Shown here: positions 25,420 to 43,691 of the stretch, one piece after another
How the letters are laid out: the number at the start of each line of letters is the position of its first letter
Position numbering within the stretch: position 1 is the first letter of the stretch
Position numbers and translations under genes: made by a program
The notes under the pieces: model-generated
Database searches by the model: none
Told to the model about the DNA's origin: nothing
What the model saw: only the letters and a program-made list of their open reading frames with translations
NCBI GenBank assembly: GCA_015207195.1
Contig: JADEXJ010000016.1
Span: forward strand, 1 to 57,475
DNA length: 57,475 bases
Direction: 5' to 3'
Source: Pleurocapsales cyanobacterium LEGE 10410
GTDB taxonomy: Bacteria; Cyanobacteriota; Cyanobacteriia; Cyanobacteriales; Xenococcaceae

Positions 25420-28272
25420 TTATGACCAACTATAGTCTTCTCTGACTTTACTTAGATTAATGTTGTAGCAAGGATCCTTACCAATCAAACTTCCCCATCT
25501 TTCTGTCATGATCGCTACTTCTTGCTGAAATCTGTGTTGTTTTTCTGGAGTATCATCATTACCTCTACTTTTTGATTCGTAATGATATAGAACTACATGA
25601 GGAAGCCAAACATTATTGTAGCCATTTTGTTTCATTTTCAAACAGAGGTCTACGTCGTTGAATGCTACTGGCAAACCTTCATCAAATCCATTCACTTCTT
25701 GATAAACCTCTTTTCTACACATCAAGCAAGCAGCAGTTACGGCAGAATAATTGTTGATAGATAGAAGTTGACCAGCATATCCAGAATCTCCATAGGCGTA
25801 ATGTTTGTGACTATGACCAGCAACACCGCGAATACCCAGAATCACTCCCCCGTGTTGAATCGTGCGATCTTGATAGAGCAACATCGCGCCAACTGCACCA
25901 ATGGAATCTCTTTGAGCTTGTTCGACCATTGCCTCAATCCAATCTTTGGTAATTACTTCCGTATCGTTGTTTAAAAACAGTAAATAATCACCTTTAGCTT
26001 TTGATATACCAAAATTATTTAGCTGGGAATAATTGAAAGGAATATCTAAACTGTGGCAGGAAAATCTTTCTGGTTCGTTTTCTTGCCATTGTGCCATTAA
26101 TTCGAGAAAGTCTGGTTCTGTACTGCCATTATCAACGACAATTACTTCATAATTAGGATAGGTGCTATGGTCAAAAATAGACTTGAGGCATTGGTTGAGA
26201 ATACTGCCCTGATTTTTGGTAGGAATGAGAATACTAACGAGTTTGTAATCGGTAATTTTATATCGTATGGCATATACTCCTTTTACCTTGTCATGTTCGA
26301 TTACTCGACCATCTTCATTACGTCGTTCTAAAGCTTCCGCGATCGCTTTAACGGCTGCTGTATTTGTCGGAACACCGTAGGTTGTCATAGAAGCAGAATC
26401 AACCCTTTGATGATAGAGAATTTTTGAGATATGAAAAATTTTATGGGTTTGTTCGGTAAACCTTAATACTAGATCGTAATCTAATGCACCTTCGTGGTCA
26501 GAACGAAAACCGCCAAGCTCGTCAATAATCGAGCGACGATAAACTCCCAGGTGAGAAATATACATTCTAGAGAGAAAAGAATCGGGACACCAATCTGGCT
26601 TTAAATAGGGTTCAAAATACTGCTCGTCTGCATTGACTTTATCTTCATCTGAATAAATTAAATCTGCTTCGGGATGTTGATTGAGTAATTCAGCAACTTC
26701 ATATAAAGCATCGGATGTCAGAAGATCTTTGTGGTTTAAAAATGTAATAAAGTCTCCTGTAGCTAATTCTAAAATTGAATTGAGAGCAGCAGCAGTATTG
26801 TCCCAATCTTTTATAGAGATCGGTTTGATGCGTGAATCTCTAGCAGCATACTTTTCTAAGATTGTTTGGACTTGTTGACAAGAAGCGCGATCGGCAATAC
26901 ACAGTTCCCAATAAGGATAAATTTGCAATATAACAGATTCGAGAGTTTTTATTAAATAACTTTCTGATGTATTAAAGTTTAATACTACTATACTAATTAG
27001 TGGCTCATATCCAAGCGTATCTATTGTTTCTGGAATCCAATCTATATCAGAAGAATCTATCGAGTTTCTTTTCAACCATGAATGATAGTCTGAGGAGACC
27101 GTTGAAAATTCTTCGACATTTTTATAAAATTTGCTTTGTATATTCTGAATTCGTTTGATAGCTATCTGGACATCAGCATTATTAGGACTAATGTTTAACG
27201 CTCTTTTGCATAAGGCGATCGCTTTAACCAATCTGTTTTGTTCTGCATATATGTTTGCTAATTCCAGATATGCTTCAATTTCATTGGGATATGCTTCTAA
27301 TATTTGTGAATAAATACCTAATAGCCTGTGTTGTTTTTGAAATAGCGTATTAGAAAGATTCCGCTGTTGTGTAGTATTTTTATTAGGCGGTAGTTTGACT
27401 TCTAGTTCAAATCTGCTAATAGTTTTCTGGATTTCAAATCCATCGCCAAATACTTCTTGATTGTTAATATATATATTGACTAAATTACAGTTAAGAGCAA
27501 TAGCTTTTTGGTAATATTGGATTGCATTATTAAAATTGTTTCTTTCTGCTAAAGAAAAAGCCAACTTTAACAAAATCAATACATTATAATAATCTTCGTA
27601 TAATAATTTATAGTAAACTTCAACATTTTTAGGGTTTTGCCCGATCTCCTCTAAACACTCTAAAACATTATCTTCGCGATCGTTTAATGCTTTTTTTTCG
27701 GTCACAAAATTAATTTTAGAGCGAACCATTGGCAAATTGTTTTGCTGTTTATCGGCTGTTTTATAGGCATCTAAAGCCTTCGACCACTGTTCTAGACTAG
27801 AAAAACAATCCCCCAAATGATAGTTAATCCAGGCAGAATTTGGATATATTGCAATACCTTTTATCCCAAGCTCGACCGCCCGTTTTAATTGATTTTTCTC
27901 AACAAATTTCTCTATTAAACAAGAATATAGCCAATCGGGTTGGTTGCGATCGATTTCTATTGCTGTTAAATAATAATTGATACTATTTTCTATGTCTCCC
28001 TGTTTGGTCAGCGTCAGTCCAATTGCTCGATAAATCTCATCTGAGTCGGGATAAATATTCAAAGCTCGTTCTCCCAGACTAAACCCAGAATCTATTCGAC
28101 CAGATTGGGCTAATAAAGTAATAACATTACCATAAATCCAGGCTGGTTGATTTTCATCAAGCTCAATAGATTGTTGGTAGAGAATTATAGCTTCTTCGAT
28201 TTGCCCTTCTTTATGCTTAGTTACAGCTAAAGTTAATAAAGATTTAATTTGTTGTTGAAGGGCAGTAACCAT
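25420..28272 (-). CDS. TPR protein fused to two GT2 glycosyltransferase domains
   Basis: About 950 residues from the ATG at 28272; the frame is open 20 codons further to a TTG, but the paralogue at 31.7-35.6 kb aligns from this Met. Residues 1-400 are TPR-like repeats. Two family 2 glycosyltransferase domains follow. The first (about 423-660) begins PLISIVVLNFN and has YSDEDK as its DxD-type site. The second (about 678-935) begins LVSILIPTKNQG, with VVDNGSTE, LFLNNDTEV and NDVDLCLKM. Both look catalytically complete. It has no membrane span, so it is cytoplasmic or peripheral. Such double-GT2 proteins act in O-antigen, exopolysaccharide or glycoprotein assembly; the TPR part may bind the acceptor or a partner. 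Confidence 0.9.
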   Translation of the reverse strand: MVTALQQQIKSLLTLAVTKHKEGQIEEAIILYQQSIELDENQPAWIYGNVITLLAQSGRIDSGFSLGERALNIYPDSDEIYRAIGLTLTKQGDIENSINYYLTAIEIDRNQPDWLYSCLIEKFVEKNQLKRAVELGIKGIAIYPNSAWINYHLGDCFSSLEQWSKALDAYKTADKQQNNLPMVRSKINFVTEKKALNDREDNVLECLEEIGQNPKNVEVYYKLLYEDYYNVLILLKLAFSLAERNNFNNAIQYYQKAIALNCNLVNIYINNQEVFGDGFEIQKTISRFELEVKLPPNKNTTQQRNLSNTLFQKQHRLLGIYSQILEAYPNEIEAYLELANIYAEQNRLVKAIALCKRALNISPNNADVQIAIKRIQNIQSKFYKNVEEFSTVSSDYHSWLKRNSIDSSDIDWIPETIDTLGYEPLISIVVLNFNTSESYLIKTLESVILQIYPYWELCIADRASCQQVQTILEKYAARDSRIKPISIKDWDNTAAALNSILELATGDFITFLNHKDLLTSDALYEVAELLNQHPEADLIYSDEDKVNADEQYFEPYLKPDWCPDSFLSRMYISHLGVYRRSIIDELGGFRSDHEGALDYDLVLRFTEQTHKIFHISKILYHQRVDSASMTTYGVPTNTAAVKAIAEALERRNEDGRVIEHDKVKGVYAIRYKITDYKLVSILIPTKNQGSILNQCLKSIFDHSTYPNYEVIVVDNGSTEPDFLELMAQWQENEPERFSCHSLDIPFNYSQLNNFGISKAKGDYLLFLNNDTEVITKDWIEAMVEQAQRDSIGAVGAMLLYQDRTIQHGGVILGIRGVAGHSHKHYAYGDSGYAGQLLSINNYSAVTAACLMCRKEVYQEVNGFDEGLPVAFNDVDLCLKMKQNGYNNVWLPHVVLYHYESKSRGNDDTPEKQHRFQQEVAIMTERWGSLIGKDPCYNINLSKVREDYSWS

Positions 28273-28477
28273 TAGATCTTGTGCATGAATAAGAAGTTTC
28301 AAGATTATATAAGATTGTTGTTCATCCTCCAAAAATTATATTGTCAAAAGCATTTAGAGATCTCCGAAAACAATTCGTGGAAAAAATCAATAATGGATTT
28401 CTAGCAACAAGCAGTGTTATTGATTTTAGATGTGTATAAACTTGGTTGCAAAATTTGTTAATTTGGGACTGAGTTAC

Positions 28478-28507
28478 TTAATGGTTTAAACTCATTTAAA
28501 CCATTAA
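28478..28507. terminator. Perfect 13-bp hairpin after the TPR-DUF1796 gene
   Basis: TTAATGGTTTAAA and TTTAAACCATTAA are fully complementary with a CTCA loop. The hairpin starts 2 bp past the stop codon of the minus-strand gene. It is AT-rich and has no clear T-run after it, so mRNA stabilisation is as likely as termination. Confidence 0.45.
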
Positions 28508-28509
28508 AA

Positions 28510-29790
28510 TTAAAAATTGTTTATGATAGTTTCCTTGATCGCTTCTGATATAGTTTTCTCGTAGGTTATTCTTCGAGCGCTAGTAGTAGGCCAACGATAA
28601 TTACTAGGACAGGGAATATTATATGTCATAGCTAATCCATCGTTTATCTTTGGCGATATTGCCTTAGTTCCAGATACAAGTAACATAACTTTGAATTTTA
28701 AGTTAGGAAACTTATGTAACAAAATTTGAATCAAGGGGTCAAGGTTAATATTCTTTCTAGAATGAATCAGAAATAAAACGGGACTAGAATTAATATACCG
28801 ATAAAAATTATGAATTCTACGTCGATAGAGAGCGATAAGTTTGGCGAAATTGTTTATTCTAAATTGCTCTGCTCGTTCATGGGAAAAAAGACAATTGTAG
28901 CGAGTATTTTTTACGCAAGTAAACTTTTCATTTTCATCGTAGGCTTTGACAACCTGAAAAGAAATTAGAAAATCTGGGTTTAGATAATTATAAAAATCGG
29001 TATTTAGTGCTTCAACTATAGATTCATAAGGATGTAACGCTAAATCGAATGGACAAGTCAATTCTCCAGCCGACTTTCTAGGTTTCAATCCCCAAAGAGT
29101 TGCTACTGTTCTGGGTAAGCAATCATAACCTAAGGAAATTATTTTATAATCGCGATCTTGTAATAAGACTTGGTTCTGTTTAGCTTGATTGACGCTAACC
29201 CATAAATATTCAAGTTCTTGTTGCTGGGAAAAATCTGCATCAAACTTGCTGAGTTCTTGGGCTTTAGTTAGAAAAGCGATCGCTTCGTCGTATTTTTCTA
29301 ACTTCAACAGTTTTCGTGTAGTTGTAAGACAAAAAGCAACATCATTAATATGGTTACTAATTTGAGCCAAAGAAGCAGACAGATCTTGAGTCTGATTACA
29401 GGCTATAGAAAGATTGACTATTGTGTTAGATAAGCTGTAGAATTGACGCTCATTTAAAATTGAATATCTACTTTTCTTGCTGGGTTGTTTGAGCCTTAAA
29501 TTATGATTAATAGAATTAATCTCCAAGGCTTTTCTATATGATTCTAACCCTTGAAGGCGATCGCCACCTTTTTCGTAAGCATTGCCTAACACGAAATAAC
29601 TAAAGGGATAATCATGATGATATTCGATTGCCTCTTTATAGACATCAAGTGATTCAGCAATCAAACCTTTAGCTAATAGTTCTTTTCCTCTCTCAAAAAA
29701 ATACGAGTATGGTTGTTTGTTTTGAGGTTCTAATGTTTCTGAGACATCAGAAAATGATTTACTTTCGAGTTGTTTAGCTTGACTCATCAT
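28510..29790 (-). CDS. TPR protein with C-terminal DUF1796 (putative papain-like) domain
   Basis: 426 residues. The N-terminal 200 residues contain TPR units (for example SYFVLGNAYEKGGDRLQGLE). The C-terminal half (about 218-420) matches DUF1796, described as a putative papain-like cysteine peptidase family. It starts IISLGYDCLPR (Cys candidate nucleophile), then PFDLALHPYESIVEAL, SHERAEQF and VLFLIHSRK. The same fold is often linked to capsule or glycan loci. Here it sits between a TPR-glycosyltransferase and two sulfotransferases, so a glycan-related role (for example a transferase on the same scaffold) is as plausible as proteolysis. The start could be either of two adjacent ATGs. Confidence 0.75.
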   Translation of the reverse strand: MMSQAKQLESKSFSDVSETLEPQNKQPYSYFFERGKELLAKGLIAESLDVYKEAIEYHHDYPFSYFVLGNAYEKGGDRLQGLESYRKALEINSINHNLRLKQPSKKSRYSILNERQFYSLSNTIVNLSIACNQTQDLSASLAQISNHINDVAFCLTTTRKLLKLEKYDEAIAFLTKAQELSKFDADFSQQQELEYLWVSVNQAKQNQVLLQDRDYKIISLGYDCLPRTVATLWGLKPRKSAGELTCPFDLALHPYESIVEALNTDFYNYLNPDFLISFQVVKAYDENEKFTCVKNTRYNCLFSHERAEQFRINNFAKLIALYRRRIHNFYRYINSSPVLFLIHSRKNINLDPLIQILLHKFPNLKFKVMLLVSGTKAISPKINDGLAMTYNIPCPSNYRWPTTSARRITYEKTISEAIKETIINNF

Positions 29791-29817
29791 TTAATTATTT
29801 ACTATTAAAACATTCGA

Positions 29818-30606
29818 TTAAGCATAAAACCAATCTTCTAGTAGAGCGAAATCTTGCTCAATTAGAGCATTTTGTTCCTTGTTAAATCCATTTAAATATT
29901 CAAAAGGTATTCGAGAAGATATTTGTGGCTGCCTAGTATTCTCGTATTTCAAGTTTTCCAGCATAAGATATTTTATATCAAATTCATATCCCACGTGATT
30001 GAAAATCTTCTCCATCGTTTCTCTGGTGTTCAAACAAACGTTTTCCAAACTGACACACATAATATCTTTCGTGTTGTTAAAAGATTGAGATTCTCTTTCC
30101 TTCCACTTTATATAGCTATTAGTATATACATCTTTCAAATAACCAATTTTTGGGGTTTTGTAGTTTTCGTACCATGAAATAAAATCTTCAGGTTTACCGC
30201 TTCGCTTGTAATCGGAATAAACTACAGAACGCGGATCTTTATACATACAAATGAAAGGAACTTTTACTTTTTCATAATTTTTATACACATCCAAAAAATA
30301 TCTTGGAGTTTTATCAAAAATACAATCCACTTTTGGGCTAATTGCTTTTGAATTAAGTTTTAATTGAGCATAAAAATTGCTAAAACTATCGGTATCGCAA
30401 ATTTTTTTTAGAGTATCTGATTCTATTTGCCATCCACTAACCATATGTTTATAAAATGGTTGAATCTGAGGAAAGTCACGGGGTGATTTTCCTAACAACA
30501 CTCCTATCTCAAATCCAGAGTCAACGTTGTTAGTTTGTCTAAATATATCTGATATTAATGTAGTTCCACTATGTTCCAACCCACAAATTACAAATTTTAT
30601 AGTCAT
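29818..30606 (-). CDS. Sulfotransferase family protein
   Basis: 262 residues from the ATG at 30606; the frame has another ATG eight codons upstream. KFVICGLEHSGTTLIS is the 5'-phosphosulfate-binding loop near the N-terminus, and YKDPRSVVYSDYKRSG is the 3'-phosphate-binding region. FDKTPRYF and SLENVCLN are also typical of PAPS-dependent sulfotransferases. It would transfer sulfate from PAPS to a sugar or other acceptor. It is 27 bp upstream of the TPR-DUF1796 gene on the same strand, so probably co-transcribed. The window has no sulfate-activation gene. The AT content is higher than in the flanking housekeeping genes. Confidence 0.82.
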   Translation of the reverse strand: MTIKFVICGLEHSGTTLISDIFRQTNNVDSGFEIGVLLGKSPRDFPQIQPFYKHMVSGWQIESDTLKKICDTDSFSNFYAQLKLNSKAISPKVDCIFDKTPRYFLDVYKNYEKVKVPFICMYKDPRSVVYSDYKRSGKPEDFISWYENYKTPKIGYLKDVYTNSYIKWKERESQSFNNTKDIMCVSLENVCLNTRETMEKIFNHVGYEFDIKYLMLENLKYENTRQPQISSRIPFEYLNGFNKEQNALIEQDFALLEDWFYA

Positions 30607-30745
30607 AGAATTATAGCTGTATCTCTCCAAGTTTAAGTTGATTTCGCTTCAGTTTAAATGCATTTTGAACAAGTTGATGCTGATTTTTATTAATCTTAGC
30701 GCCCTATACTTATTTTGGGCTATTAAAAAAAATAGCGATTGCCAA

Positions 30746-31624
30746 TTAGTGAATTAAAGGTTTGACAAATAAAGAATTTAAATCTTCAATCTGATTTTCT
30801 AACAAATTTTCAAGCTTCGATCTTACTAAGGCGTTTGGGGAATATTTCAATGAAAGAGAATTAATTTTTTTATTAAACAAACTAATCATATTTTTTGAAC
30901 TAAAATCCAAATCAACGAATTGTGACAAAAGATCTAAGATATTTTGCGGATTGTCTATTAAATCATCATAAGATAGATACAATACTTTATCAAAAACTTT
31001 GCTATAATAGTCAATTATCTTGCTATAATTATTGTAATTCATTTGTCTGACAATCCAATTATCATTGTTGTTAATTAATTTCAAGAAAAAAGCATCGTAA
31101 CTTTCTTGAGTATGTGACATATTCTGTTTAAAACCTTCGAGTAATAAGCGAAATGAAGATATCATTCTTTTTACAGGATTTCTACACATAATAATTATGT
31201 GTGCATCGCCTACTATAGATTTCATTACCTCAATTTGAGATAAATTCAATAGCATATATTCTGGGGTACATTCACCAGTAAATTTTATATTATCTATATT
31301 GGTAACATTGGCAAATAGATCGAGATATTTTATCTTAGAAACTGAAGTTTTTAACAACTGTTGATTAGTCTTTAAATACCATTGCCATTTAGGATTTACA
31401 AAGCTTAAGTCTTTAGCATTACAAACTTTATTAATTTCTCTGTCAAATTGAGCTTGAGAGAATTCTTTTAACACTGATTCATTTCTCAAGCCAAATACAG
31501 TATCAAAATAATGAAGCTCTTTTAAGGGATGAATTGCTATTTCTGGATGTTGGTTTAGCAATTCAGTAATAAATGTGCTTCCTGCTCTTTGAGAGCCTAT
31601 ACCTAAAATAAAATTTTTTTGCAT
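30746..31624 (-). CDS. Sulfotransferase domain protein
   Basis: 292 residues. FILGIGSQRAGSTFITELLN is the PAPS 5'-phosphosulfate loop and IIMCRNPVKRMISSFR the 3'-phosphate site. HPLKELHYFD and GECTPEYMLL match the heparan-type sulfotransferase fold, in which a Lys/Glu near the acceptor site is catalytic. It is not closely similar to the neighbouring sulfotransferase, so the two probably sulfate different positions or sugars. It is strongly AT-rich, like its neighbour, consistent with acquisition by transfer. The 3' relic of a glycosyltransferase gene lies immediately upstream. Confidence 0.85.
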   Translation of the reverse strand: MQKNFILGIGSQRAGSTFITELLNQHPEIAIHPLKELHYFDTVFGLRNESVLKEFSQAQFDREINKVCNAKDLSFVNPKWQWYLKTNQQLLKTSVSKIKYLDLFANVTNIDNIKFTGECTPEYMLLNLSQIEVMKSIVGDAHIIIMCRNPVKRMISSFRLLLEGFKQNMSHTQESYDAFFLKLINNNDNWIVRQMNYNNYSKIIDYYSKVFDKVLYLSYDDLIDNPQNILDLLSQFVDLDFSSKNMISLFNKKINSLSLKYSPNALVRSKLENLLENQIEDLNSLFVKPLIH

Positions 31625-31633
31625 GGAGAGTAA

Positions 31634-31704
31634 TTATTCTACTGATGGTTGATGAGTTTGTTGCACTTTTACTTGTTGTTCTGTGGTGGAAATAGAAAGA
31701 TCGC
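31634..31704 (-). repeat. Duplicated 3'-end relic of the TPR-GT4-GT4 gene
   Basis: On the minus strand this reads DLSISTTEQQVKVQQTHQPS, a diverged copy of the neighbouring protein's C-terminus (PIRTTEQQVKELQQTYQSL). It has no start and no body, so it is the tail of a lost or partly duplicated copy. Confidence 0.7.
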
Positions 31705-31725
31705 GCTCGCTCCGATAACAAGCAA

Positions 31726-34700
31726 CTAATCTAGTAATGATTGATAAGTTTGTTGCAGTTCTTTTACTTGTTGTTCTGTGGTTCTAATAGGAAGATCGTG
31801 ATCTATCAGCTGTTGATGTTTTCTCGGTTCACTATCAATACTGCGTAAAATAGCAATCAGATCCTCGATATTATCTGGGTCGAATATATCTCCATTGACC
31901 CCTGCAACCAAATCTTCGGCTAACGCACCTTTATTTGATGCTACTACCCAAACCCCTGCTGCTGCTGCTTCACGGGTTACCAGCCCAAAACTTTCTGGCC
32001 ACATCGAAGGTGCCATCAGCACGTCAATTGTACTGTAGAATTCATACATTTTTGTTTGGGGAATTTTGGAGATAAAAGTAACTGGTGTACTTCCCCAGGA
32101 ATCGTGGTTAATCGAACCTGCAACCTGTGCATGAGAAACTACGATTACTTCACAGTTCGATAACTGAGCTTTTTCTACCGCTTCTTTAAATAAGAAGTAG
32201 CCTTTGTGTGCTGCCATACCGCCAATATGAGCTATGCGTACTTTACCACTAACCGAAGGCGTTCTAGGTAAGCGTGGTTGAGGGATAATTCCATTGCGAT
32301 TTGCCTGGGTTTTTGTAATGCCATTAAGACGATACAGTTCAGTAAAGGCTTCAGAGACTGCTAATACTCCACTGGCTTTTGCCAAAAGCTGCTTTAAATA
32401 GCGTTTTCTCTTTAAAGAACTACCAACATCATTGCTATCGCAAGCAGCTACTATCGGATCGTTTTGTTGATAATTACATTCAATTCCGCGATCGTTAACT
32501 AAAAATTGATGATCGCTAATCCACCAAGCATCATGAACAGTAACTAAATAGGGAATATTTAGCTCCGACGTTGCTTCTAATACCGAGCCTGTCAATCTTT
32601 GAACACAGTGAAAATGAACTAAATCGGGTTGATTATATTGTAGGTATTCGGTAAATATTTCATACATCTTAGGATTCTGATATTGCCAGTCCATACCTAC
32701 AACCATCGGAGAACTGACTTTAGTTACATGAATTCCTTCATAGCTGTATTCTAAAATTTCATAAGGATGAGGATTTCCGTTATCGGTGGTAAAAACCGAA
32801 ATTTCGTATTCGTCACCATAATGAGCCTTCAAAATATCTACATTATCTTTAACAATGCGGGTTGCGCCTCCAATACTTTGAGGAGGATAAAAGACGTTGA
32901 CAATTAGAAGTTTCTTTTTAGCAGTACGGGGTTTGAGATTACCTGCTATGGTTTCCTGTTCGATCCCAGACAAAACGATATTTTTAATGTTGTCAGCCAT
33001 GACTGGAATACTGTACTCTTGCCAGGCTCTTTCATAAGCAGCTTGAGCAATTTTCTGGCGGAACTCAGCATTCGAGACCAATAAATCTAGCTTGGCGTAC
33101 CATTCTTCTGGGGTACTGGCGATTAAAGCATCGACTCCATCTGAAATAATTTCTGTATAAGTTTGCGTATTACTAACGACGGAGGGTACTCCCAAGCAAC
33201 CAGCTTCAAACCATTTCAGTTCACTTTTGCAGTTATTGACGGCGGTGGGAAGCAACACTGCAATATTAATGTCTGCCTGCCTGAGAAATTCCCAATAGAT
33301 AGAGACATCTTTTACCAAATCTACTCTAATGATTTGTTCTTGATAGGGAATCAATACTTCTGGTAAAGTCAGGTATCCCATTAAAATGAGTCTGACGTGG
33401 GGATACTGCTGGAGAATTTTCGCGATCGCTGGTGCAGCCAACTGCTCGAAATCAGCGTTGTGAGCTTTAGTACCACTACCATAAAAGATAGATAGATAGT
33501 CTTTTTGAATCTTAGGTGTGTTTAGTTCGGCAAATTCTGAATTGAGCTTATCTAAGGCGTTACGATGTATAAAACAAGTTTTTTTCGCGACAACTCGTTT
33601 CATTTCTCTAGCCAATGCAGGGGTAGAAGCAATGCCATAATCACACAAACTCATCGCCTTGTAGAAGAGGGTAGTTCCTCGTAACAAACCTTGATACTGT
33701 TCTTCAGAAACTTGACCGCCATAACTTTCAATCGGATCGGGATATTCTTGTGCTTTGAATATCAGATCGTCTATTTCGTAAAATACTACCTTGTTAATCG
33801 CCTTAGCATATTCAATAGTTTCAATTAAATCTGGCAACGCTGGCACTCGGTAAAAAATTACGACATCATGAAAATGAAGTCGATTTTTAGCCTGTTTGAC
33901 ATCCGACCAAGGAAAGTATTCGACCGAAATTCCAGCGTATTCTAGCTGCTCGATTTTTTGTTCTACTCGGTAATGCATACATTGAGACAGGTGATCGTCA
34001 ACAATCAAAATTACCGAAGGATTTGATGGAATCTCTCTGGCATTTTCTAGCTGAGGAATATAAGAGTGATCTTGGAAAAGCTTGATGGCTTTACAGAAAG
34101 CTTCGCTCGCTTTTTCCTTCTGTCCCTGCTTTAAGAACATATCTCCATGAGTGAACATATCATTCCACTGTTGAAGGAGACTGTCTTTTAATCCTTGGTA
34201 AGGCAGGTAGGAACTAGGATTATATTTGATGCTGCGACGATATAAGGCGATCGCCTCACTCCATTTACCCGAATTGTTATAGGCAACGCCAAGATTATAG
34301 TAAGACCAAAAATAGTCGGGATAGAGTTCTAACGCTCGCTTATAGAAGATAATTGCCTCTTCTGATTTTCCCTGTTTTAATAGGGTATCGGCTAAGTTGT
34401 GATAAGACCAAGAGTATTGTGGATTGCGAATGATTGATTGATGATAATTTAAGACCGCATCCTCTAATTTCCCTTGTGCTTGTAATTCATCAGCCTTGTC
34501 ATGATAGGTTTTCCATCCAGGAAGTGAGGTGATTGAGGGACGATTATCCGTTTCAGCAATAGAATTGGATTGTGCTAATGTAGACTTGTTTGATAACAAT
34601 TGGGAAAGTTTTTGCTTACACAAGACTAGCTGTTTGTTCTCTGGATACAATTCCAGTCCTTTTTGGCACACTGCTGCTGCTTGACCTAATTCATGATGGT

Positions 34701-35577: not shown

Positions 35578-36018
35578 TGTAGTAAGCAACCGAAGAAAAA
35601 TACGCTCTCAGATACGATGTTTGTGTAGTGTGCTATATATTTAGTCTTTGTTTAACAGCTATGACAAGCGAGACTATAGATCGCCTGAATAATGGTTCGC
35701 GATCGCCAACTTAACTAGTTGTCAAAAATAGACAAGAAACGCAGCTTATAGCTGATACTTATTACTTAAAGACCAACTAGATCGAATCTCATTAGTAGTA
35801 ATATAAAAAATGTTTTGACAAACTCACCATCTACATAAAATTAACATCGAATACGTAAATTGACATTCGTATAATCACGGATAATCAATAAATACTTGTA
35901 AGAGAATTGACGGATAAATAATGATCGATAGTAGTTTTACAGAGCAAAAATATGTATCTAAAAGCACATTTTTCAGAAAACATTTGAAATCGAAAAATTA
36001 TGCTCGATCGCCTTTTTC
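35578..36018. other. Intergenic gap in the glycan cluster
   Basis: About 440 bp of AT-rich DNA with no supported gene. It probably holds the promoter for the 31.7-35.6 kb gene. No repeat family member is evident. Confidence 0.4.
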
Positions 36019-39000
36019 TTAATTATGTTCTATTGATAAAAGGTGGTGAAATACGCGCTCTATTTGTCGTTTGACCGTTTCAGAAGTAAAAGAGCCAATC
36101 GCCTGAAGAGCATTGGAAGACAGATGATTCCACAAGGGGCGATCGCGATATAGGCGCAGGATACAATCGGCAAACTCCGCCGTGGTGTTCGCTTCTAAAA
36201 TATGCCGTTCGGGAATTAAATTCATTCCTTCAGTACCAATCGCGGTAGAAACCACGGGCAAGCCATACTCCAAACTGTGACCGATTTTGCCCTTCATACC
36301 TGCACCATATCTCAAAGGAGAAACCGAGAGTTTGTGACTCAAAAAATAAGGTGTCACGTCATCTACATAACCCGTTACGGTAATGCGATCGCATCTTAAA
36401 GCTAAAACTTCGGCACTAGGACTACTACCGAGGAGGGTAACTGTAAGATCGGGTTTTTGCTGCCACACCAAAGGCATGATTTCCCGACATAGCCAGACTA
36501 CCCCATCGACGTTGGGCGGATGATTGTAGCTGCCAATAAACAAAATACCCGAACGCTGCTCGTAACTAGGAATATCTCCCTGATAGGCAGTATGGATATT
36601 TGGCACGACTGCGAGGTTGCCAACCTTTTGTTCGCTCAAGATCTGTTGTTCGATTGGGGTAATAGTAATGGTCAAATCTGCCTGATGAGCCATTTTTAAT
36701 TCCCTAGCCTGCATTTCGATCCATTCTGCTGCTTCGATGCTTCTTGTGGGGTCGATTTCCCAGGCTCTTTTGAGACGTAGATAGTGCAGATCGATGGTGT
36801 CATAAATCACCTTGATTTCTGCTCTTTGGCGGATTGTGGGAACGTACTTTTCATTTAGTTCGGGGCGACAAATCCAGGCAAGGTCGATTTTTGATAGGCG
36901 ATCGCTTATTTGCTGGTCGATCAGCGTGCCATAACCCTGTTGGGTATACAAAACCTCGATCTCTAAGTTTTGTAAAGTTGAAGTATAGGGTTCTTCCCTC
37001 ACTCCGTTATCCGCAGCAAAAATTACGTGATAGTCGAGAGCTTTGAAGATTTTTAATAGCTCAAATAGTCGCCGACAGCCAGATTCTTTGTCATAACTGG
37101 GCATATAGCTATCGATGACCAGAATGGTTTGGTGACCCAAATATTTTCTACTGGCTTGAGGAACATGATCGATCCCAATATTTGGTAAATAGCTATCTGG
37201 TTGCAGTACGCTCTGCCATTTTTGCTTGAACTTGACTGCATTGACTAGCTGATATTGCTTGACACCGCTGGCGGTAGAAGTACCAGAGGTAATACCCTCA
37301 TAGTGTATTACCTCAGATTTGGGTTGATACATCACCTTGAGTCCTAGCTGATGGCGAATCGCAAAGCAAAGATCCGTATCTTCATAGTAAGCAGGGGCAA
37401 AATCTCGTTCAAAACCCTGCAAACGGTTAAAAACTTCCTGTTTCACCATCAGGCTGGCTCCCGAACAATAGTCAACGGGACGCAGATAGTTGTACTTAGG
37501 ATCGTAGGGGTTGTCATGTCTGCCATAGTTCCATCCCGAAGCATCCTGCCAAATAATGCCCCCTGCTTCCTGTAAACTTCCTTGGGGATAGACTAGTTTG
37601 GAACCCACCGCGCCAACATCATCCCGTGCCAAAACTTCAACCAGACTTTCAATACAGTTGGGCTTAATCTCGGTATCGTTGTTGAGAAAATACAGATATT
37701 TACCCTTAGCTGCGGATGCTCCCTGATTGCAGGAGTAAATAAATCCTTGATTAGCCTGACTATTGATTAAATTAATTGCGGAAACTGATTCTAAAAGATC
37801 TTTGGTGCGATCGCCAGAGCAGTCATTGACTACAATAATCTCTACCTGAGTAGCTTGAGCCAGATTTTGGGCGATCGCCTTGAGACATTTGAGGGTATAG
37901 TCTAGCTGATTGTAAACGGGAATGATAATCGAAACTTCGGGGCGATCGCTATGGGGTAAAATTCGCTCTAACTCGGCAGCTAAAGCCGATAAATCCTCTG
38001 ACGGTTCGGCATGGGTAACATCCTTCTCGACACTAGAAAAATCTGGTAACAGGGTAACTGGTTTTCCCTGACACTGCTGTAAACGCGCCAAGATCTCGCT
38101 ATTTTTTGGCTGAATTTGTAGAGCCATTTGATAGGTGACGATGGCTTGATCGGTCTTTCCTCGCTGGTGCAACAAATCTCCCAGCTTGAGATACAGGGTA
38201 ATATTTTTGCTATCGATCGCCAAAGCCTGATGATAGGCTTGAGCATCGTTGGGGTCTTGTTCGATAGCCAGTAAAGAATGCTTTAACGCTTGCTCTCGAT
38301 CTTGCTCACTACGGTGATATAAAGCGTCGCCCAGCTTCTGCTGTACCTGGGGTAAATCTGGCTGGATCTGAGCTGTTTTTTGATATGCAGACACTGCCTG
38401 ATTCCAGCGGTTTAGCTTGCCATAGGTCTCGGCTAGATTGTAATACGACCAGGGAAAGCTGGGATTGAGTTTGATTGCTTGATGATAGACAGGAATGGCT
38501 TCTGTCCACTGACCCAACTGAATTAGGGCATAGCCCAAATTGTTATACGACCAGGAAAAATCGGGCTGATGTTTAATTGCTTGACGATAGGCAGCAACTG
38601 CTTGCGACCACTGCTGCTGTTGACTCCAAACTTCTCCCAACTCATGATAGGCAGCACCATAATCGGTGGCGTGTTGTGTGGCTTTTTGATAGCACACCCC
38701 AGCCTGTGACCATTGCTGTCCTTGCTGATAGAGATTGCCTAGACGGTAATAAAGTTTGGGGTCTGGTTTTTGCTTTACACCCTGTAAATAGCAGGCGATC
38801 GCTCGATCTGTTGCTCCCGATCGATTCAGTAATGCGCCTAAAGCTAAATATGCCTCGACCATTTGTGGCTCTAGGGCGATCGCCTGTTGATAGTGAGCAA
38901 TTGCCTGGGATTGCTGCTGCTTAGCGTAGTTACCTGCGAGGTTGTAGTGCGTTTGAGCTTCAGATGAATATTGACCCTCGGCTGGCTTTGAAGAAGTAAC

Positions 39001-39621
39001 CAGAGTCGCAGCAACTTTGCTCTTAGAAGCTTGCTTTAACTGCAAAATCATCCGACAGTATTTAGCTGCTTCTGACCACAACTCCATCTGTTCGTAAAGT
39101 TCGACAACCGCTCGATAAGTTTCAATCCGTTGCGGTTCGAGTCGGGCAGCCCGTAAATATTGTTCCACGGCAGCCTGTAATTGTCCCTGTTGCCGTAGAG
39201 TTTGTCCCTGATGTAAATAGTTTTTTAGATCTTGATTAAACTGAGGTTGATTGCTCTGTTGCAGTTGGCATTTGGCAAGATGCCGATGTACGGCGGTCAA
39301 TTCAGGTTTGATTTTTAATGCCTGCTGATAGTGAGTGATGGCTTGTTGCCACTGTTTTCGTTGAGCGTAGAGCGTTCCTAAGTTGGCATAAACTTCGGCG
39401 AAATCTGGCTCTAGGGAGATCGCCCGTGTATAGTAACCGACTGCTTCGTCAGCTTTACCCGTTTTCTGTAGAGCATCAGCCATCAGCTTGTGAGCTTTAG
39501 CCAAATCTGGCGCGATCGCCAATGCTCGATTGCAGGCTTGAATTGTTGCTTGCCATTGTTGTGACTGCCAATAAGCCTCGGCTTGTTCTAAACAAATTTG
39601 TGCCTCGTCTACTTCGATCAT
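36019..39621 (-). CDS. TPR protein fused to GT2 and GT4 glycosyltransferase domains
   Basis: About 1200 residues from the ATG at 39621 ([18 protein letters not shown]); the frame is open to a GTG at 39744, but that extension is not TPR-like. Residues 1-540 hold 12 or more TPR units. The GT2 domain (about 562-810) opens [15 protein letters not shown] and has [18 protein letters not shown] and [11 protein letters not shown]. The GT4-like GT-B domain (about 840-1190) has [40 protein letters not shown] and [20 protein letters not shown]. The GT2-GT4 order recalls bifunctional rhamnan or O-antigen synthases. It is transcribed with rfbB, 162 bp upstream, which suggests that it uses dTDP-rhamnose. 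Confidence 0.9.
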
Positions 39622-39783
39622 TTTCTTGGATTGAATATTTATTCGGGGACAATAGGAGTTGGGAGTTACTAACTTGCTAATTTCGGCAACGCTAACCAGA
39701 GAAATATAAACATGCAGGGGAGTTGAGGGAAATCGAACCAACACGATACATTCCCCGCGCTTTGCAGTAATTAAGAATTAAAG

Positions 39784-40884
39784 CTAATGACTAACTGCTT
39801 GTTGGGCGTAAACCTGTTCGTAGTAATTTTTATACTCATCACTGAGTAGGGGTTGCCACCAATCGCGGTTAGCTAAATACCATTCAACGGTACGGCGTAA
39901 GCCTCCTTGGACGGTTTCTTGAGGACTCCAGCCCAGCTCGCGCTTGATTTTACTAGCATCGATCGCATAACGGCGATCGTGTCCTGCCCGATCTTTAACA
40001 AAGGTAATTAAACTTTTCGCTGGGCGAACGGGAAGATCTGGTGCTAGCTCATCCATTAGTTCGCACAGTTGCTCTACCAGGTCAATGTTTTTGACTTCGT
40101 TGTTACCGCCCACGTTGTAGGTTTCTCCAGGCGCACCCCGATGAATCACCACATCTAAAGCGCGACAGTGATCTGCAACATAAAGCCAGTCCCGAATATT
40201 TTGCCCATCACCATATACGGGGAGGGGTTTACCCAACAAAATATTGATGCACATCAAGGGAATGAGTTTTTCGGGAAAGTGATAGGGACCGTAATTGTTT
40301 GAGCAGTTGGTAATCATGGTGGGCATACCGTAGGTATGGAAATATGCCCGCGCTAGGTGATCGCTGCCTGCTTTAGATGCAGAGTAGGGACTGTTAGGTG
40401 TATAGGGAGTAGTTTCGGTAAAGGCAGGGTCATCTTGTTCCAAGCTGCCATAGACTTCATCGGTAGAGACGTGTAAAAAGCGATCGCTTTGAGGCTGTTG
40501 CCGTTTGTTCCAACACTGACGGAAAGCTTCTAGTAGGGTAAAGGTTCCCACTACGTTAGTCTGCACGAATGCCCCAGGTCCTAAAATGGAACGGTCTACA
40601 TGAGATTCGGCAGCAAAGTGAGCCACAGTATCGATGTTTTCTGTTTCTAACAGCTTATCGACCAAGGTGCGATCGCAGATATCTCCCCGAACAAACTCCA
40701 AATCGGGATTGCCCGTCAAACTAGCCAAATTTTGCTGATTTCCCGCATAGGTGAGGGCATCTAAGACTACCACGCGATCGCCTGGATAACTATTACACCA
40801 ATGATGGACGAAGTTCGAGCCAATAAAGCCCGCTCCTCCTGTAATCAGTATCCGACGGGGTGTTCTATTACTATCTTGTTGCAT
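39784..40884 (-). CDS. rfbB: dTDP-glucose 4,6-dehydratase
   Basis: About 366 residues from the ATG at 40884; the open frame extends 31 codons upstream with unrelated sequence. An extended short-chain dehydrogenase: Rossmann motif [28 protein letters not shown] (catalytic Thr/Asp/Glu region), [11 protein letters not shown] (Tyr-x3-Lys), [15 protein letters not shown] and [12 protein letters not shown]. It converts dTDP-glucose to the 4-keto-6-deoxy intermediate of dTDP-L-rhamnose synthesis. It is separated from rfbA by a 238-bp gap carrying a dispersed repeat, which may have split a single rfb operon. Confidence 0.96.
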
Positions 40885-40993
40885 AAAAGTAAAATTTTCT
40901 ATTATTTCTGTACGAACAATTCTTTGTAGTGGACTAACACAGCCGAATATAGTGCAATAAACTATTGCAAAGAACAAAAATTATCGACCACAT

Positions 40994-41093
40994 ATCAAAA
41001 ATCCAATCATTCGTTGGTGAGCCAATAAATTATCTGTGTTCATCTGTGTTTATCTGTGGACTCTTCTAATGCAACATTTAAGGCGTGTCAGTT
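40994..41093 (+). repeat. Dispersed intergenic repeat, copy 2
   Basis: Lies between rfbB and rfbA. ATCAAAAATCCAATCATTCG, TTATCTGTGTTCATCTGTG and ACATTTAAGGCGTGTCAG align with the copy at 10068-10167 across about 100 bp. Confidence 0.75.
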
Positions 41094-41122
41094 CATTGGA
41101 ACAAAAAACCTTTCGCCTATAA

Positions 41123-42196
41123 TTACGTTAATTCGATCTTAGAATCATCACCGATCATAAACCGCAAGGCTTTGGGTCGTTGGGGTGCAACTTTCAAATG
41201 CGCTCTTTCTCCTACCAAACTATCGACAATGCGAGAGCTAATTCCTTCCAAGGTTGCGCCTTTGAGAATTACGCTATGTTCGATATCAATATCGATCAGG
41301 GTTGTATCATCCGCAATGCTGCTGTAAGGACCGATAAAGCAGTTCTGGATTTTACAGTTTTTGCCAATAGTGACAGGACCGCGAATCATGGAATTGATAA
41401 TTTGTGAGCCTTCTTCGATGTGAACCCGACCGCTGAGTTTGCTTTCACTATCTACCGAGCCTTCAATGGTTAACTCCAAGCAGGTATCTAAGATAATTTG
41501 ATTAGCTGCCAACAGGTCGTCTTTTTTCCCCGTATCCAACCACCATCCCTGTAGCTTAAAGGATGCTACGCTTTGCTGCTGGTCGATTAGATACTGGATT
41601 GCATCGGTAATTTCTAGTTCTCCCCTAGCAGAAGGCTGAATATTGGCGATCGCCTGGTGAATTACAGGAGAAAACAGATAAACCCCGACTAAAGCCAAAT
41701 TAGACGGAGGATCTTTAGGCTTTTCAATTAGCTGCAACACCTTGCCTGTCTCATCTACCTTTGCCACCCCAAAAGCACTGGGGTTTGCTACTTCACAAAG
41801 CAGAGTTAGAGCATCTAACTGTTTAGATTTAAACTTATCTAAGAATAGGTCGAGTTCGCTTTGTACCAGGTTATCTCCTAAATACATCACAAAAGGAGAA
41901 TCGCCTAAAAAGGGTTGAGCTATCTTAACCGCATGAGCCAGTCCTAAAGGTTCATCTTGTTTAATGTAGGTAATATTTGCGCCAAAGCGATCGCCATTGC
42001 CCGTTTTTGCCTGTACTTCTCCACCCGTTTCGGGGCTGATAATAATCCCAATTTCGGTAATTCCCGCAGCCACAATCGATTCGATCCCATACCAAAGAAT
42101 TGGCTTGTTTGCCACAGGAACTAATTGCTTTGCTCCTGTATAAGTTAGGGGACGCAATCTTGTACCTTTACCACCAGAGAGAATAATTGCTTTCAT
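41123..42196 (-). CDS. rfbA: Glucose-1-phosphate thymidylyltransferase (long, left-handed helix form)
   Basis: 357 residues. The nucleotidyltransferase domain (1-235) has ILSGGKGTRLRPLTYTGAKQ, PVANKPILWYGIE, YLGDNLV (metal Asp) and EKPKDPPSNLALVGVY. The remaining 120 residues form a left-handed beta-helix (hexapeptide-like GPVTIGKNCKIQN). This matches the StrD/long form rather than the 290-residue enterobacterial RmlA. It makes dTDP-glucose. Its start overlaps the rfbD stop (ATGA), so the two are translationally coupled. Confidence 0.94.
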   Translation of the reverse strand: MKAIILSGGKGTRLRPLTYTGAKQLVPVANKPILWYGIESIVAAGITEIGIIISPETGGEVQAKTGNGDRFGANITYIKQDEPLGLAHAVKIAQPFLGDSPFVMYLGDNLVQSELDLFLDKFKSKQLDALTLLCEVANPSAFGVAKVDETGKVLQLIEKPKDPPSNLALVGVYLFSPVIHQAIANIQPSARGELEITDAIQYLIDQQQSVASFKLQGWWLDTGKKDDLLAANQIILDTCLELTIEGSVDSESKLSGRVHIEEGSQIINSMIRGPVTIGKNCKIQNCFIGPYSSIADDTTLIDIDIEHSVILKGATLEGISSRIVDSLVGERAHLKVAPQRPKALRFMIGDDSKIELT

Positions 42197-43149
42197 TGTT
42201 TTCTTGATAGCTGTTGTTGGTTGTTACTTATGAGCTTGTGCAGCTTTTTTTCATCCTTGATTGAAATGGAATGCCACTCGCTTAACATCGTTCTTAGAGA
42301 TTCACGCCAGTAAGGGGGGTAATCTTCTAGGGTTGCTACGATCTTTGCCTTGGATAAGACTGAATAAGCAGGACGTTGGGTGAGGGTAGGAAAATCGTCG
42401 GTGGCGATCGGTAAAACTCGTTTAATTTTTAAAGGAAAGCCTACCTGTCTAGCTTCGGCAAAAGTAGCTACTGCTAGGTCATACCAGCTTGCCACCCCGC
42501 TATTAGTAAAGTGATAAATTCCTTTGATCCTAGGATCGTTTAAAGATTTCGCTAATAGTTGAGTGATAAATACCGCAATGTCATAAGACCAAGTAGGGCT
42601 ACCTATCTGATCGGCAACCACCCTTAATTCTTCTTTGGCTGCACCCAGTTTCAACATAGTTTTGACAAAGTTACCATGTCCCCGCGAACCATATACCCAG
42701 GCGGTGCGGAGAATAATATGGCGATCACAATTATCTTGGACTCCTGCTTCACCCAGTAGCTTCGATTGACCGTATACTCCTAAAGGAGCGGTGGGGTCTG
42801 TCTCTAAGTAGGGAGTATGATTTTGACCGTTAAACACATAGTCGGTTGAAATATGCAGCAGGGTTGCACCTATCTCTTCCGCAGCCTGGGCGATCGCTGT
42901 TGGTGCCTGGGCGTTAATCGCCATTGCCATCTCTGGTTCGTTTTCCGACTTGTCTACAGCAGTATAGGCAGCAGCATTAACTATTATATTAGGCTTAATC
43001 TCTGCAATCCGCCGTCGAATTTCTGCTGGCTGGCTCAAATCTAATTCCTGACGACCAACACCGATAACTTCTCCTAGGGTAGTTAAGGTTTGCTGTAACT
43101 CTTGTCCTACCTGTCCTGTAATTCCCGTGAGTAATATTTTTTGATTCAT
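42193..43149 (-). CDS. rfbD: dTDP-4-dehydrorhamnose reductase
   Basis: 318 residues, slightly long for the family. Short-chain dehydrogenase fold: ILLTGITGQVGQELQQTL, NAAAYTAVDKSE, STDYVFNG, YGQSKLLGE (Tyr-x3-Lys) and RTAWVYGSRG. It performs the NAD(P)H reduction that finishes dTDP-L-rhamnose. About 25 extra C-terminal residues (SIKDEKKLHKLISNNQQQ) have no clear role. It overlaps rfbC upstream and rfbA downstream by four bases each. Confidence 0.95.
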   Translation of the reverse strand: MNQKILLTGITGQVGQELQQTLTTLGEVIGVGRQELDLSQPAEIRRRIAEIKPNIIVNAAAYTAVDKSENEPEMAMAINAQAPTAIAQAAEEIGATLLHISTDYVFNGQNHTPYLETDPTAPLGVYGQSKLLGEAGVQDNCDRHIILRTAWVYGSRGHGNFVKTMLKLGAAKEELRVVADQIGSPTWSYDIAVFITQLLAKSLNDPRIKGIYHFTNSGVASWYDLAVATFAEARQVGFPLKIKRVLPIATDDFPTLTQRPAYSVLSKAKIVATLEDYPPYWRESLRTMLSEWHSISIKDEKKLHKLISNNQQQLSRKQ

Positions 43150-43691
43150 GCAAACACCTCGGCTTGTTCTAGAGGTACTCCTGCTTTGTCTTTAGCTGAT
43201 AAAACTGGTTTTTCTGTTATTTTCCAGTCTATATTTAGTTGTGGATCGTTCCATAAAATAGAACGTTCGTACTCTGGTGCGTAATAATCGGTTGTTTTAT
43301 ATAAAAAATCTGCCGTAGCGGACAATACCACAAACCCATGGGCAAACCCAGGAGGAACCCAAAATTGGCGTTTATTTGTCTCGCTCAATAGACAACCAGT
43401 CCACTGTCCAAAAGTAGGAGAACTTTTACGGATATCTACCGCAACATCATAGACTTCTCCCAAGACGACACGAACTAATTTCCCTTGAGTTTGCTTTGTT
43501 TGATAATGTAAACCTCGCAAAACATTCTTGGCAGAACGAGAGTGATTATCTTGAACAAAATGTGTAGCAACACCAGTTTTCTCTTGAAAAGTTTTGTCAT
43601 TGAAGCTTTCCATAAAAAAGCCACGATCGTCACCAAATACTTTGGGTTCAATAATCAAAACATCGGGGATTGTTGTTTGAATAACATCCAT
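43146..43691 (-). CDS. rfbC: dTDP-4-dehydrorhamnose 3,5-epimerase
   Basis: 181 residues from the ATG at 43691 (MDVIQTTIPDVLIIEPKVFG); the upstream open extension is not family-like. A cupin-fold epimerase with the catalytic His in RGLHYQTKQTQGKLV, the DVAVDIRKSSPTFG strand, and FWVPPGFAHGFVVLS. First gene of the coupled rfbC-rfbD-rfbA set. Confidence 0.96.
   Translation of the reverse strand: MDVIQTTIPDVLIIEPKVFGDDRGFFMESFNDKTFQEKTGVATHFVQDNHSRSAKNVLRGLHYQTKQTQGKLVRVVLGEVYDVAVDIRKSSPTFGQWTGCLLSETNKRQFWVPPGFAHGFVVLSATADFLYKTTDYYAPEYERSILWNDPQLNIDWKITEKPVLSAKDKAGVPLEQAEVFA

What the first reader, a model, noticed from the sequence alone, without database searches (positions are those of the whole stretch)
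25420..43691. Surface-glycan locus built around three giant TPR-glycosyltransferase fusions with two sulfotransferases
Seen: TPR+GT2+GT2, TPR+GT4+GT4 and TPR+GT2+GT4 proteins of about 950-1280 residues, a TPR-DUF1796 protein, two distinct sulfotransferase-like proteins and a dTDP-rhamnose set, all on one strand. Known: TPR-linked transferases can glycosylate proteins, and PAPS sulfotransferases decorate cyanobacterial exopolysaccharides. Inferred: the locus makes a sulfated, rhamnose-containing surface glycan or glycoprotein, with TPR modules as the common scaffold. The absence of flippase, polymerase and ABC exporter genes sets it apart from usual polysaccharide loci and favours protein glycosylation or export genes elsewhere. 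This is the best candidate here for an undescribed system.
Basis: partly seen in the sequence, partly recalled or inferred. Interest (0 to 1): 0.75.

Follow-up and report, generated by a model that had tools for sequence, protein, structure and literature searches.

The report
Swappable TPR-linked sulfated-glycan gene locus
A cyanobacterial gene cluster appears to build a rhamnose-containing, sulfated surface sugar with giant soluble enzymes, several of which share the same repeat-protein front end, and relatives swap the downstream genes, which would make it a variable sugar-coat locus that carries no export genes of its own.

Summary
In detail: TPR+GT2+GT2, TPR+GT4+GT4, TPR+GT2+GT4, TPR+DUF1796, two sulfotransferases and rmlC-D-A-B lie on one strand. 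The genome belongs to the Pleurocapsa/Xenococcus family. The locus has a conserved anchor (TPR-GT2-GT4, often beside rml) and a low-GC cassette that differs between relatives. No Wzt motif was seen there. New here: a ~190-residue TPR leader, usually with paired QPxWxY-type motifs 69 residues apart, joined to at least seven catalytic architectures and coded first or second after the anchor in 17 of 24 informative loci. Outside the family the same GT2-GT4 didomain showed no such TPRs and, in 23 loci, lies near a Wzt-motif protein. Best reading: a variable locus for a sulfated, rhamnose-containing glycan made by TPR-docked cytoplasmic enzymes; whether the acceptor is protein or lipid is open. DUF1796 is not a general part. 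New variant of a known kind.

The parts
25420..28332 (-). TPR-GT2-GT2 fusion (cassette); likely start 28272
   Evidence: Pfam: PF00535 140.2 bits, two stretches, plus TPR; orthologue in G008; GC 0.354
27688..28272 (-). TPR leader module of TPR-GT2-GT2
   Evidence: Seed of the leader HMM; QPxWxY-type motif at residues 62 and 131
28510..29790 (-). TPR-DUF1796 protein (cassette, not general in relatives)
   Evidence: PF08795 31.5 bits plus TPR; close relative in 1 of 59 other genomes
29818..30630 (-). Sulfotransferase b
   Evidence: PF13469 30.5 bits, PF00685 25.1 bits; GLEHSGTT and KDPRSVVYS stretches
30746..31624 (-). Sulfotransferase a
   Evidence: PF13469 64.6 bits; GSQRAGST and RNPVKRMIS stretches; 58% identical gene in the G008 cassette
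31726..35589 (-). TPR-GT4-GT4 fusion (cassette)
   Evidence: PF00534, two stretches, plus TPR; orthologue in G008, GT4 domains 80 and 79% identical
34981..35568 (-). TPR leader module of TPR-GT4-GT4
   Evidence: Seed of the leader HMM; motif at residues 50 and 119
36019..39744 (-). TPR-GT2-GT4 anchor; likely start 39621
   Evidence: PF00535 and PF13692 plus TPR; didomain in 24 of 27 family genomes at E <= 1e-100
39784..40977 (-). rmlB, dTDP-glucose 4,6-dehydratase
   Evidence: TIGR01181 519 bits, over cut-off
41123..42196 (-). rmlA, long form
   Evidence: TIGR01208 509 bits, over cut-off
42193..43149 (-). rmlD
   Evidence: PF04321 345 bits
43146..43793 (-). rmlC; likely start 43691
   Evidence: PF00908 251 bits
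44021..47242 (-). GH38 alpha-mannosidase-like gene, syntenic neighbour upstream; role in the locus not shown
   Evidence: PF01074 286 bits; precedes rmlCDAB and the anchor in six other genomes

Best explanation
A variable surface-glycan locus of Pleurocapsa-type cyanobacteria. rmlCDAB supply dTDP-L-rhamnose (established pathway; family assignment shown). The conserved TPR-GT2-GT4 anchor builds a core glycan (inferred from homology). The enzymes of the swappable low-GC cassette (leader-TPR glycosyltransferases, sulfotransferases, in relatives also methyltransferases) extend and sulfate it (inferred). All proteins look soluble, so assembly is cytoplasmic (inferred). The shared TPR leader and the anchor's own TPRs dock the enzymes onto a common partner, the acceptor or each other, so that different cassettes give different glycans (inferred). 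Acceptor, as shares within this reading: a protein glycosylated directly in the cytoplasm, roughly as FlmG does with flagellin, 0.45; a lipid-linked glycan exported by genes elsewhere, 0.40; other or undecided, 0.15.
For: Domains and order. Anchor didomain in 24 of 27 family genomes. Sulfotransferase within 12 kb downstream in 15 of 25 anchor loci, 22 genes in 261 kb; 13 control regions, 230 kb, none; genome-wide about 3 PF13469 matches per Mb in 27 genomes (summed by hand, other method). Cassette GC below anchor GC in 22 of 24 loci, the other two equal at two decimals (values copied). Leader HMM separates 20 proteins (92-350 bits; four are its seeds) from all other ORFs tested (at most 72 bits); motif in 19 of 20 leaders, 0 of 25 anchors, 1 of 522 other ORFs; leader gene first or second after the anchor in 17 of 24 loci. 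No Wzt_C match in the source genome; its best Wzt-like hits are 24-32% identical over the ABC part and lack the Wzt-type signature. FlmG precedent: TPR part binds flagellin (passages).
Against: No experiment. No acceptor gene in the locus. 10 of 25 loci show no sulfotransferase within 12 kb (one of them, G015, has only 530 bp). 7 of 24 loci have no leader. TPR modules within a locus are not more alike than between loci (permutation p 0.58). Leaders mostly follow catalytic type; only one well-supported clade (98/97) mixes types. Several loci are near copies of each other (G011/G012, G013/G020, G025/G026, G002a/G003/G005), so they are not independent. Seven Wzy_C matches elsewhere in the genome (six over cut-off) leave a lipid-linked route open.
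Confidence: 0.6

Rival explanations
1. An ordinary lipid-linked O-antigen or exopolysaccharide pathway whose initiation and export genes lie elsewhere. The TPRs only hold the enzymes together or at the membrane.
For: Homologues of the GT2-GT4 didomain outside the family often sit by a Wzt-motif protein and rml genes (24 of 80 loci carry the motif; in Dolichospermum confirmed as ABC2_membrane and Wzt_C). The source genome has Wzy_C genes on sulfotransferase-bearing contigs. Synechan shows a Wzx/Wzy route with two sulfotransferases (passages).
Against: No initiating transferase, flippase, polymerase or ABC exporter in the window locus; no Wzt motif within 12 kb of any of 25 anchors. No Wzt_C match in the source genome nor in G001, G003, G005 and G008, which carry the anchor. 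Wzx was not searched genome-wide.
Confidence: 0.25
2. The sulfotransferases act on something other than the glycan (a lipid, a small molecule or a protein side chain) and only share the locus.
For: PF13469 and PF00685 cover many acceptors (recalled). One PF13469 match of the source genome lies in a 2750-aa frame, so not all members in it need be glycan enzymes.
Against: Sulfotransferase a matches heparan sulfate 3-O-sulfotransferases among solved structures, weakly (E 1e-4, after a bacterial sulfotransferase at 3e-6). Sulfotransferases lie in the same stretches as glycosyltransferases in the cassettes scanned. A TPR-sulfotransferase fusion occurs beside TPR-glycosyltransferases in G020.
Confidence: 0.1

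Closest known systems
FlmG, TPR-glycosyltransferase of Caulobacter (cytoplasmic flagellin O-glycosylation; passages of PMC7591256)
   Same: N-terminal TPR joined to a soluble transferase; no exporter needed for the sugar; TPR part gives acceptor specificity there
   Different: Single GT-B domain and pseudaminic acid; here two GT domains, rml genes, sulfotransferases, several fusions in a row, and no known acceptor
S-layer glycan (slg) clusters, WsaE type (passages of PMC2943079)
   Same: rml genes, multidomain transferases, low-GC core; GT2-GT4 homologues outside the family sit in similar settings
   Different: slg clusters have wzm and wzt just upstream; here none, and TPRs instead
Synechan xss cluster of Synechocystis (passages of PMC8205485)
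   Same: Cyanobacterial glycan genes with two sulfotransferases; product contains rhamnose and sulfate
   Different: xss carries Wzx, Wzy and PCP and eight separate glycosyltransferase genes; here giant fusions and no Wzx/Wzy
Flagellin glycosylation islands of Geobacillus (PMC5109656; search listing and start of abstract only)
   Same: An island of glycosylation genes compared between strains
   Different: Tied to flagellin; here anchored by rml and TPR-GT2-GT4

Membership tests
FlmG-like cytoplasmic O-glycosyltransferase | N-terminal TPR with C-terminal glycosyltransferase in one soluble protein | tested here: met
   Pfam TPR plus GT2/GT4; no TM segment
FlmG-like cytoplasmic O-glycosyltransferase | TPR part binds a protein acceptor that is then glycosylated | not testable with these tools
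   Needs binding and glycan assays
FlmG-like cytoplasmic O-glycosyltransferase | Acceptor gene (flagellin) beside the transferase gene | not tested
   No search for flagellin or other acceptors was made; the named genes of the locus include none
ABC-exported rhamnose glycan (slg/O-antigen type) | rml genes and GT2-GT4 type transferase | tested here: met
ABC-exported rhamnose glycan (slg/O-antigen type) | wzm and wzt just upstream of the transferases | tested here: not met
   No Wzt motif in the window or within 12 kb downstream of 25 anchors; no Wzt_C match in the source genome
Wzx/Wzy sulfated EPS cluster (xss type) | Sulfotransferases among glycosyltransferase genes | tested here: met
Wzx/Wzy sulfated EPS cluster (xss type) | Wzx, Wzy and PCP in the cluster | tested here: not met
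   No membrane protein among the 11 proteins of the locus; Wzy_C matches only on other contigs
PAPS-dependent sulfotransferase | 5'-PSB and 3'-PB PAPS-binding motifs (motif names recalled) | tested here: met
   a: GSQRAGST and RNPVKRMIS; b: GLEHSGTT and the weaker KDPRSVVYS
DUF1796 (annotated as papain-like cysteine peptidase) | Pfam match over the curated cut-off | tested here: met
   31.5 bits, cut-off 23; Cys and His invariant in nine relatives
DUF1796 (annotated as papain-like cysteine peptidase) | Papain-like fold | tested here: inconclusive
   Model mean pLDDT 61.7 from five sequences; no PDB match with E <= 0.001

The most novel reading that the evidence does not exclude
A docking-coded glycan assembly line. 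A ~190-residue TPR leader (usually with paired QPxWxY-type motifs 69 residues apart) acts as a universal plug. Joined to interchangeable catalytic heads (GT2-GT2, GT4-GT4, GT2-GT4-GT4, WbsX, single GT4 or GT2, GT-methyltransferase), it recruits them to one constant partner, perhaps the anchor TPR-GT2-GT4 or the acceptor protein, much as docking domains order polyketide modules. Strains swap low-GC cassettes to change and sulfate the glycan, and no polysaccharide exporter is used.
Probability: 0.27. Interest if true: 0.8.

Novelty: new variant of a known kind. Interest (0 to 1): 0.55.

Why it matters
If right, these cyanobacteria have a variable, sulfated surface-glycan locus whose enzymes are physically addressed by a common TPR plug. 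The order of cytoplasmic glycan assembly would become testable by swapping leaders. It would point to sulfated glycans, perhaps on proteins, outside the Wzx/Wzy route known for synechan, and offer modular parts for making sulfated sugars.

Tried and rejected
Rejected: DUF1796 as a core part. The TPR-DUF1796 query matched 52 of 60 genomes, but nearly always through TPRs; the DUF domain itself matched in the source and 1 of the 59 others, where it lies between tex and a response regulator. The Pfam search found DUF1796 in 83 of 386 genomes of the phylum, including two of those 59 (G032, G034), but missed the window's own copy, so each search undercounts.

Rejected: integration of the cassette at tRNA-Thr. 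No 15-base repeat of the tRNA elsewhere in the window; no tRNA in the 17 relative loci scanned.

Tried, negative: within-locus likeness of TPR modules (33 modules, 21 within-locus and 507 between-locus pairs, permutation p 0.58). Link between anchor and Wzt_C in the genus: Wzt_C matches in 6 of 12 genus genomes (one below cut-off), five anchor-bearing genomes without it; no pattern.

Tried, weak: DUF1796 structure from five sequences; PDB fold search without a match at E <= 0.001; the viral library gave other DUF1796 proteins and, best, a giant-virus glycosyltransferase. A profile search of DUF1796 against PDB sequences gave five chance hits (E 0.14-0.17, all a botulinum light chain), not followed.

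Limits. The 25 anchor loci are 25 of the 37 places listed, from 19 genomes; two more were fetched but left out because the contig ends at the anchor (L307, L316), and ten weaker or cut places were not fetched. The 13 controls are the 20 regions minus six with the anchor and one cut at rmlB (L143). The sulfotransferase HMM was built from genes of the window, G012, G008, G018a and other contigs of the source genome, so 4 of the 15 loci with hits match by construction; the other 11 do not, but include near copies. One search scored only 8 candidates per genome and held 2 members of this family; one search lists part of its matches, and only its per-genome counts were used. Frames in my scripts are greedy and can misplace starts. 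Wzx flippases were not searched for genome-wide. The Wzt motif (Walker A plus S[STV]GM) and the TM count are simple scans. The QPxWxY-type pattern was derived from the leaders it was counted on.
Full report
What is there. In reading direction: mreB, mreC, mreD, a GH38 alpha-mannosidase-like gene, rmlC, rmlD, rmlA, rmlB, TPR-GT2-GT4, TPR-GT4-GT4, sulfotransferase a, sulfotransferase b, TPR-DUF1796, TPR-GT2-GT2, then a tRNA-Thr on the other strand. GC is 0.39-0.46 in the rml and TPR-GT2-GT4 genes and 0.27-0.39 in the five genes after them. None of the 11 proteins from 25420 to 47242 has a TM segment by a simple hydropathy count.

Where it comes from. The genome (G000, 6.64 Mb, 392 contigs) groups with Pleurocapsa and Xenococcus.

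A fixed part and a swapped part. I fetched DNA downstream of GH38 in 20 relatives and around further anchors. GH38-rmlCDAB-anchor is kept in G012, G011, G005 (one extra gene before the anchor), G008, G015 and G003 (anchor read as two ORFs); rml with anchor also in G025 and G026, whose contigs start at rmlC, and partly in others. In G002, G007 and G016 rmlCDAB follows GH38 without TPR-GTs; in G006, G010 and G013 no rmlCDAB follows GH38. G002, G006, G007, G010 and G013 carry the anchor elsewhere: the didomain was found at E <= 1e-100 in 24 of 27 family genomes. After the anchor the genes change. G008 keeps TPR-GT4-GT4 (GT4 domains 80 and 79%, TPR part 56%), sulfotransferase a (58%) and TPR-GT2-GT2 (54 and 72%, TPR part 50%), but has a 1913-aa TPR-GT2-GT4-GT4 protein, another sulfotransferase and a methyltransferase before them, and an FkbM methyltransferase where the window has sulfotransferase b and DUF1796. 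G012 has a TPR-GT2-GT4-GT4 protein and three sulfotransferase genes by Pfam. Xenococcus 7305 has two sulfotransferases and methyltransferases. Other cassettes hold TPR-GT8, TPR-WbsX, TPR-GT4-GT4-methyltransferase and a TPR-sulfotransferase.

Statistics. In 25 anchor loci (of the 37 places), within 12 kb downstream (261 kb in all), a sulfotransferase HMM finds 22 genes in 15 loci; 13 control regions (230 kb, downstream of GH38 without an anchor) have none. Four of the 15 loci supplied HMM seeds; the other 11 include near copies of each other. Genome-wide, PF13469 gives 486 matches in 27 genomes of about 158 Mb, about 3 per Mb, by another method (summed by hand). No Wzt motif appears in the 25 stretches, and one polytopic protein does. 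GC of the 8 kb after the anchor is below that of the anchor in 22 of 24 loci and equal in two (Wilcoxon p 4e-5, two-decimal values, G015 left out).

The leader. Two of the three window fusions begin with the same ~190-residue TPR stretch (50% identical over 206 residues), although their catalytic parts belong to different families. An HMM from four copies (window and G008) separates 20 proteins (92-350 bits, the four seeds included) from the other ORFs of these loci and controls (at most 72 bits, anchors included). A QPxWxY-type motif, derived from these proteins, occurs in 19 of the 20, in 0 of 25 anchors and in 1 of 522 other ORFs; in 16 of the 20 it occurs as a pair exactly 69 residues apart, counted by me from the printed positions. 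Leader genes are first (14) or second (3) after the anchor in 17 of 24 informative loci. Their catalytic parts are GT2-GT2, GT4-GT4, GT2-GT4-GT4, GT2-GT4, GT4-GT2-GT2, GT4-GT4-methyltransferase, WbsX, single GT2, single GT4, or unassigned (some assigned by likeness to a scanned homologue); the GT4-GT4-methyltransferase protein is the weakest leader (92 bits, no motif). In a tree of the 20, one well-supported clade (98/97) unites GT4-GT4 leaders with the WbsX leader; otherwise leaders mostly follow catalytic type. In 386 genomes of the phylum, matches over 250 bits occur only in the two family members sampled (in the source genome only the two window copies), and weaker ones (92-99 bits) in four others; only 8 candidates per genome were scored.

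Outside the family. The didomain is widespread (best 80 loci kept). Of 42 proteins with more than 350 residues before the GT2 domain, the four from Pleurocapsa/Xenococcus relatives match the window's TPRs by BLAST and the other 38 do not; Pfam finds GT4, GT2, a pyruvyltransferase or nothing there, and no TPR, in seven proteins from other phyla. A Wzt-motif protein lies in 24 of the 80 loci, 23 of them outside cyanobacteria, often just upstream, with rml genes in many. In Dolichospermum the TPR-free homologue lies beside ABC2_membrane and Wzt_C genes. So the anchor's catalytic half comes from a family often used in ABC-exported glycans; here it carries TPRs and has no exporter beside it. The source genome has no Wzt_C match; its best Wzt-like hits (24-32% identity over the ABC part) lack the Wzt-type signature. 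It has seven Wzy_C matches, six over cut-off, on other contigs, so other polysaccharide routes exist.

DUF1796. Not a general part. It has links to sulfation and glycan genes: a Sulfuricurvum protein fuses a sulfotransferase to DUF1796 two genes after the GT2-GT4 didomain; a cyanobacterial DUF1796 gene is followed about 50 bp later by a sulfotransferase (L122); the best structural match in the viral library is a giant-virus glycosyltransferase. In the window it follows sulfotransferase b after 27 bp. The model is weak and has no confident PDB match. The 'peptidase' label was neither supported nor excluded.

How it probably works. Shown: domains, order, soluble character, conserved anchor, variable cassette, enrichment of sulfotransferases, shared leader, no exporter genes in the locus. 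Inferred: rhamnose use, cytoplasmic assembly, docking by TPRs, sulfation of the glycan, the acceptor. FlmG shows that an N-terminal TPR can bring a soluble transferase to its protein acceptor (passages of PMC7591256). The slg clusters show the lipid-linked, ABC-exported alternative (passages of PMC2943079), and synechan the Wzx/Wzy alternative with sulfotransferases; the same paper says cyanobacterial sulfotransferase genes lie mostly in putative polysaccharide clusters (passages of PMC8205485). A phylum-wide survey reports missing Wzx or Wzm candidates in several cyanobacteria (passages of PMC4594306). The locus fails the exporter feature of both polysaccharide types, so I do not file it under either. 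Against docking by acceptor: TPRs within a locus are no more alike than between loci.

Literature. Ten searches listed no paper on TPR-GT loci with sulfotransferases in cyanobacteria; one search was too broad to be useful; DUF1796 gave no paper. The library holds open-licence papers only, so this is weak evidence of absence.

Verdict. A real, family-wide and variable glycan locus. The kind is known; the arrangement is a new variant.

Noticed in passing
L219:8698-10215: A Sulfuricurvum protein joins a sulfotransferase domain to DUF1796, two genes after a GT2-GT4 didomain gene.
   Followed up: partly
L124:1-2121: A cyanobacterial frame of about 750 aa joins CBM20, GDSL lipase and DUF1796 domains; DUF1796 frames of 740-815 aa recur.
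   Followed up: no
L317-L323 (contigs C117, C9, C78, C322, C361, C133, C180 of the source genome): Other sulfotransferase-bearing glycan loci; Wzy_C matches lie on C9, C133, C180 and C322.
   Followed up: partly
L001 (G000:C275:21248-21886): The strongest sulfotransferase match of the source genome lies in a 2750-aa frame; similar 1745-2894-aa frames recur in relatives. Possibly an olefin-synthase-type polyketide synthase (recalled, not tested).
   Followed up: no
L140:11193-15961; also L138, L297, L298: A recurring sub-cassette: leader-TPR protein of about 430 aa with an unassigned C-terminal part, a GT4 protein, a 371-aa protein without Pfam match, and in most a 275-aa hexapeptide-like protein.
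   Followed up: partly
L328:4887-5639, L329:3055-3807, L330:4887-5651: DUF1796 relatives (31-33% identity) on contigs of the viral collection.
   Followed up: no
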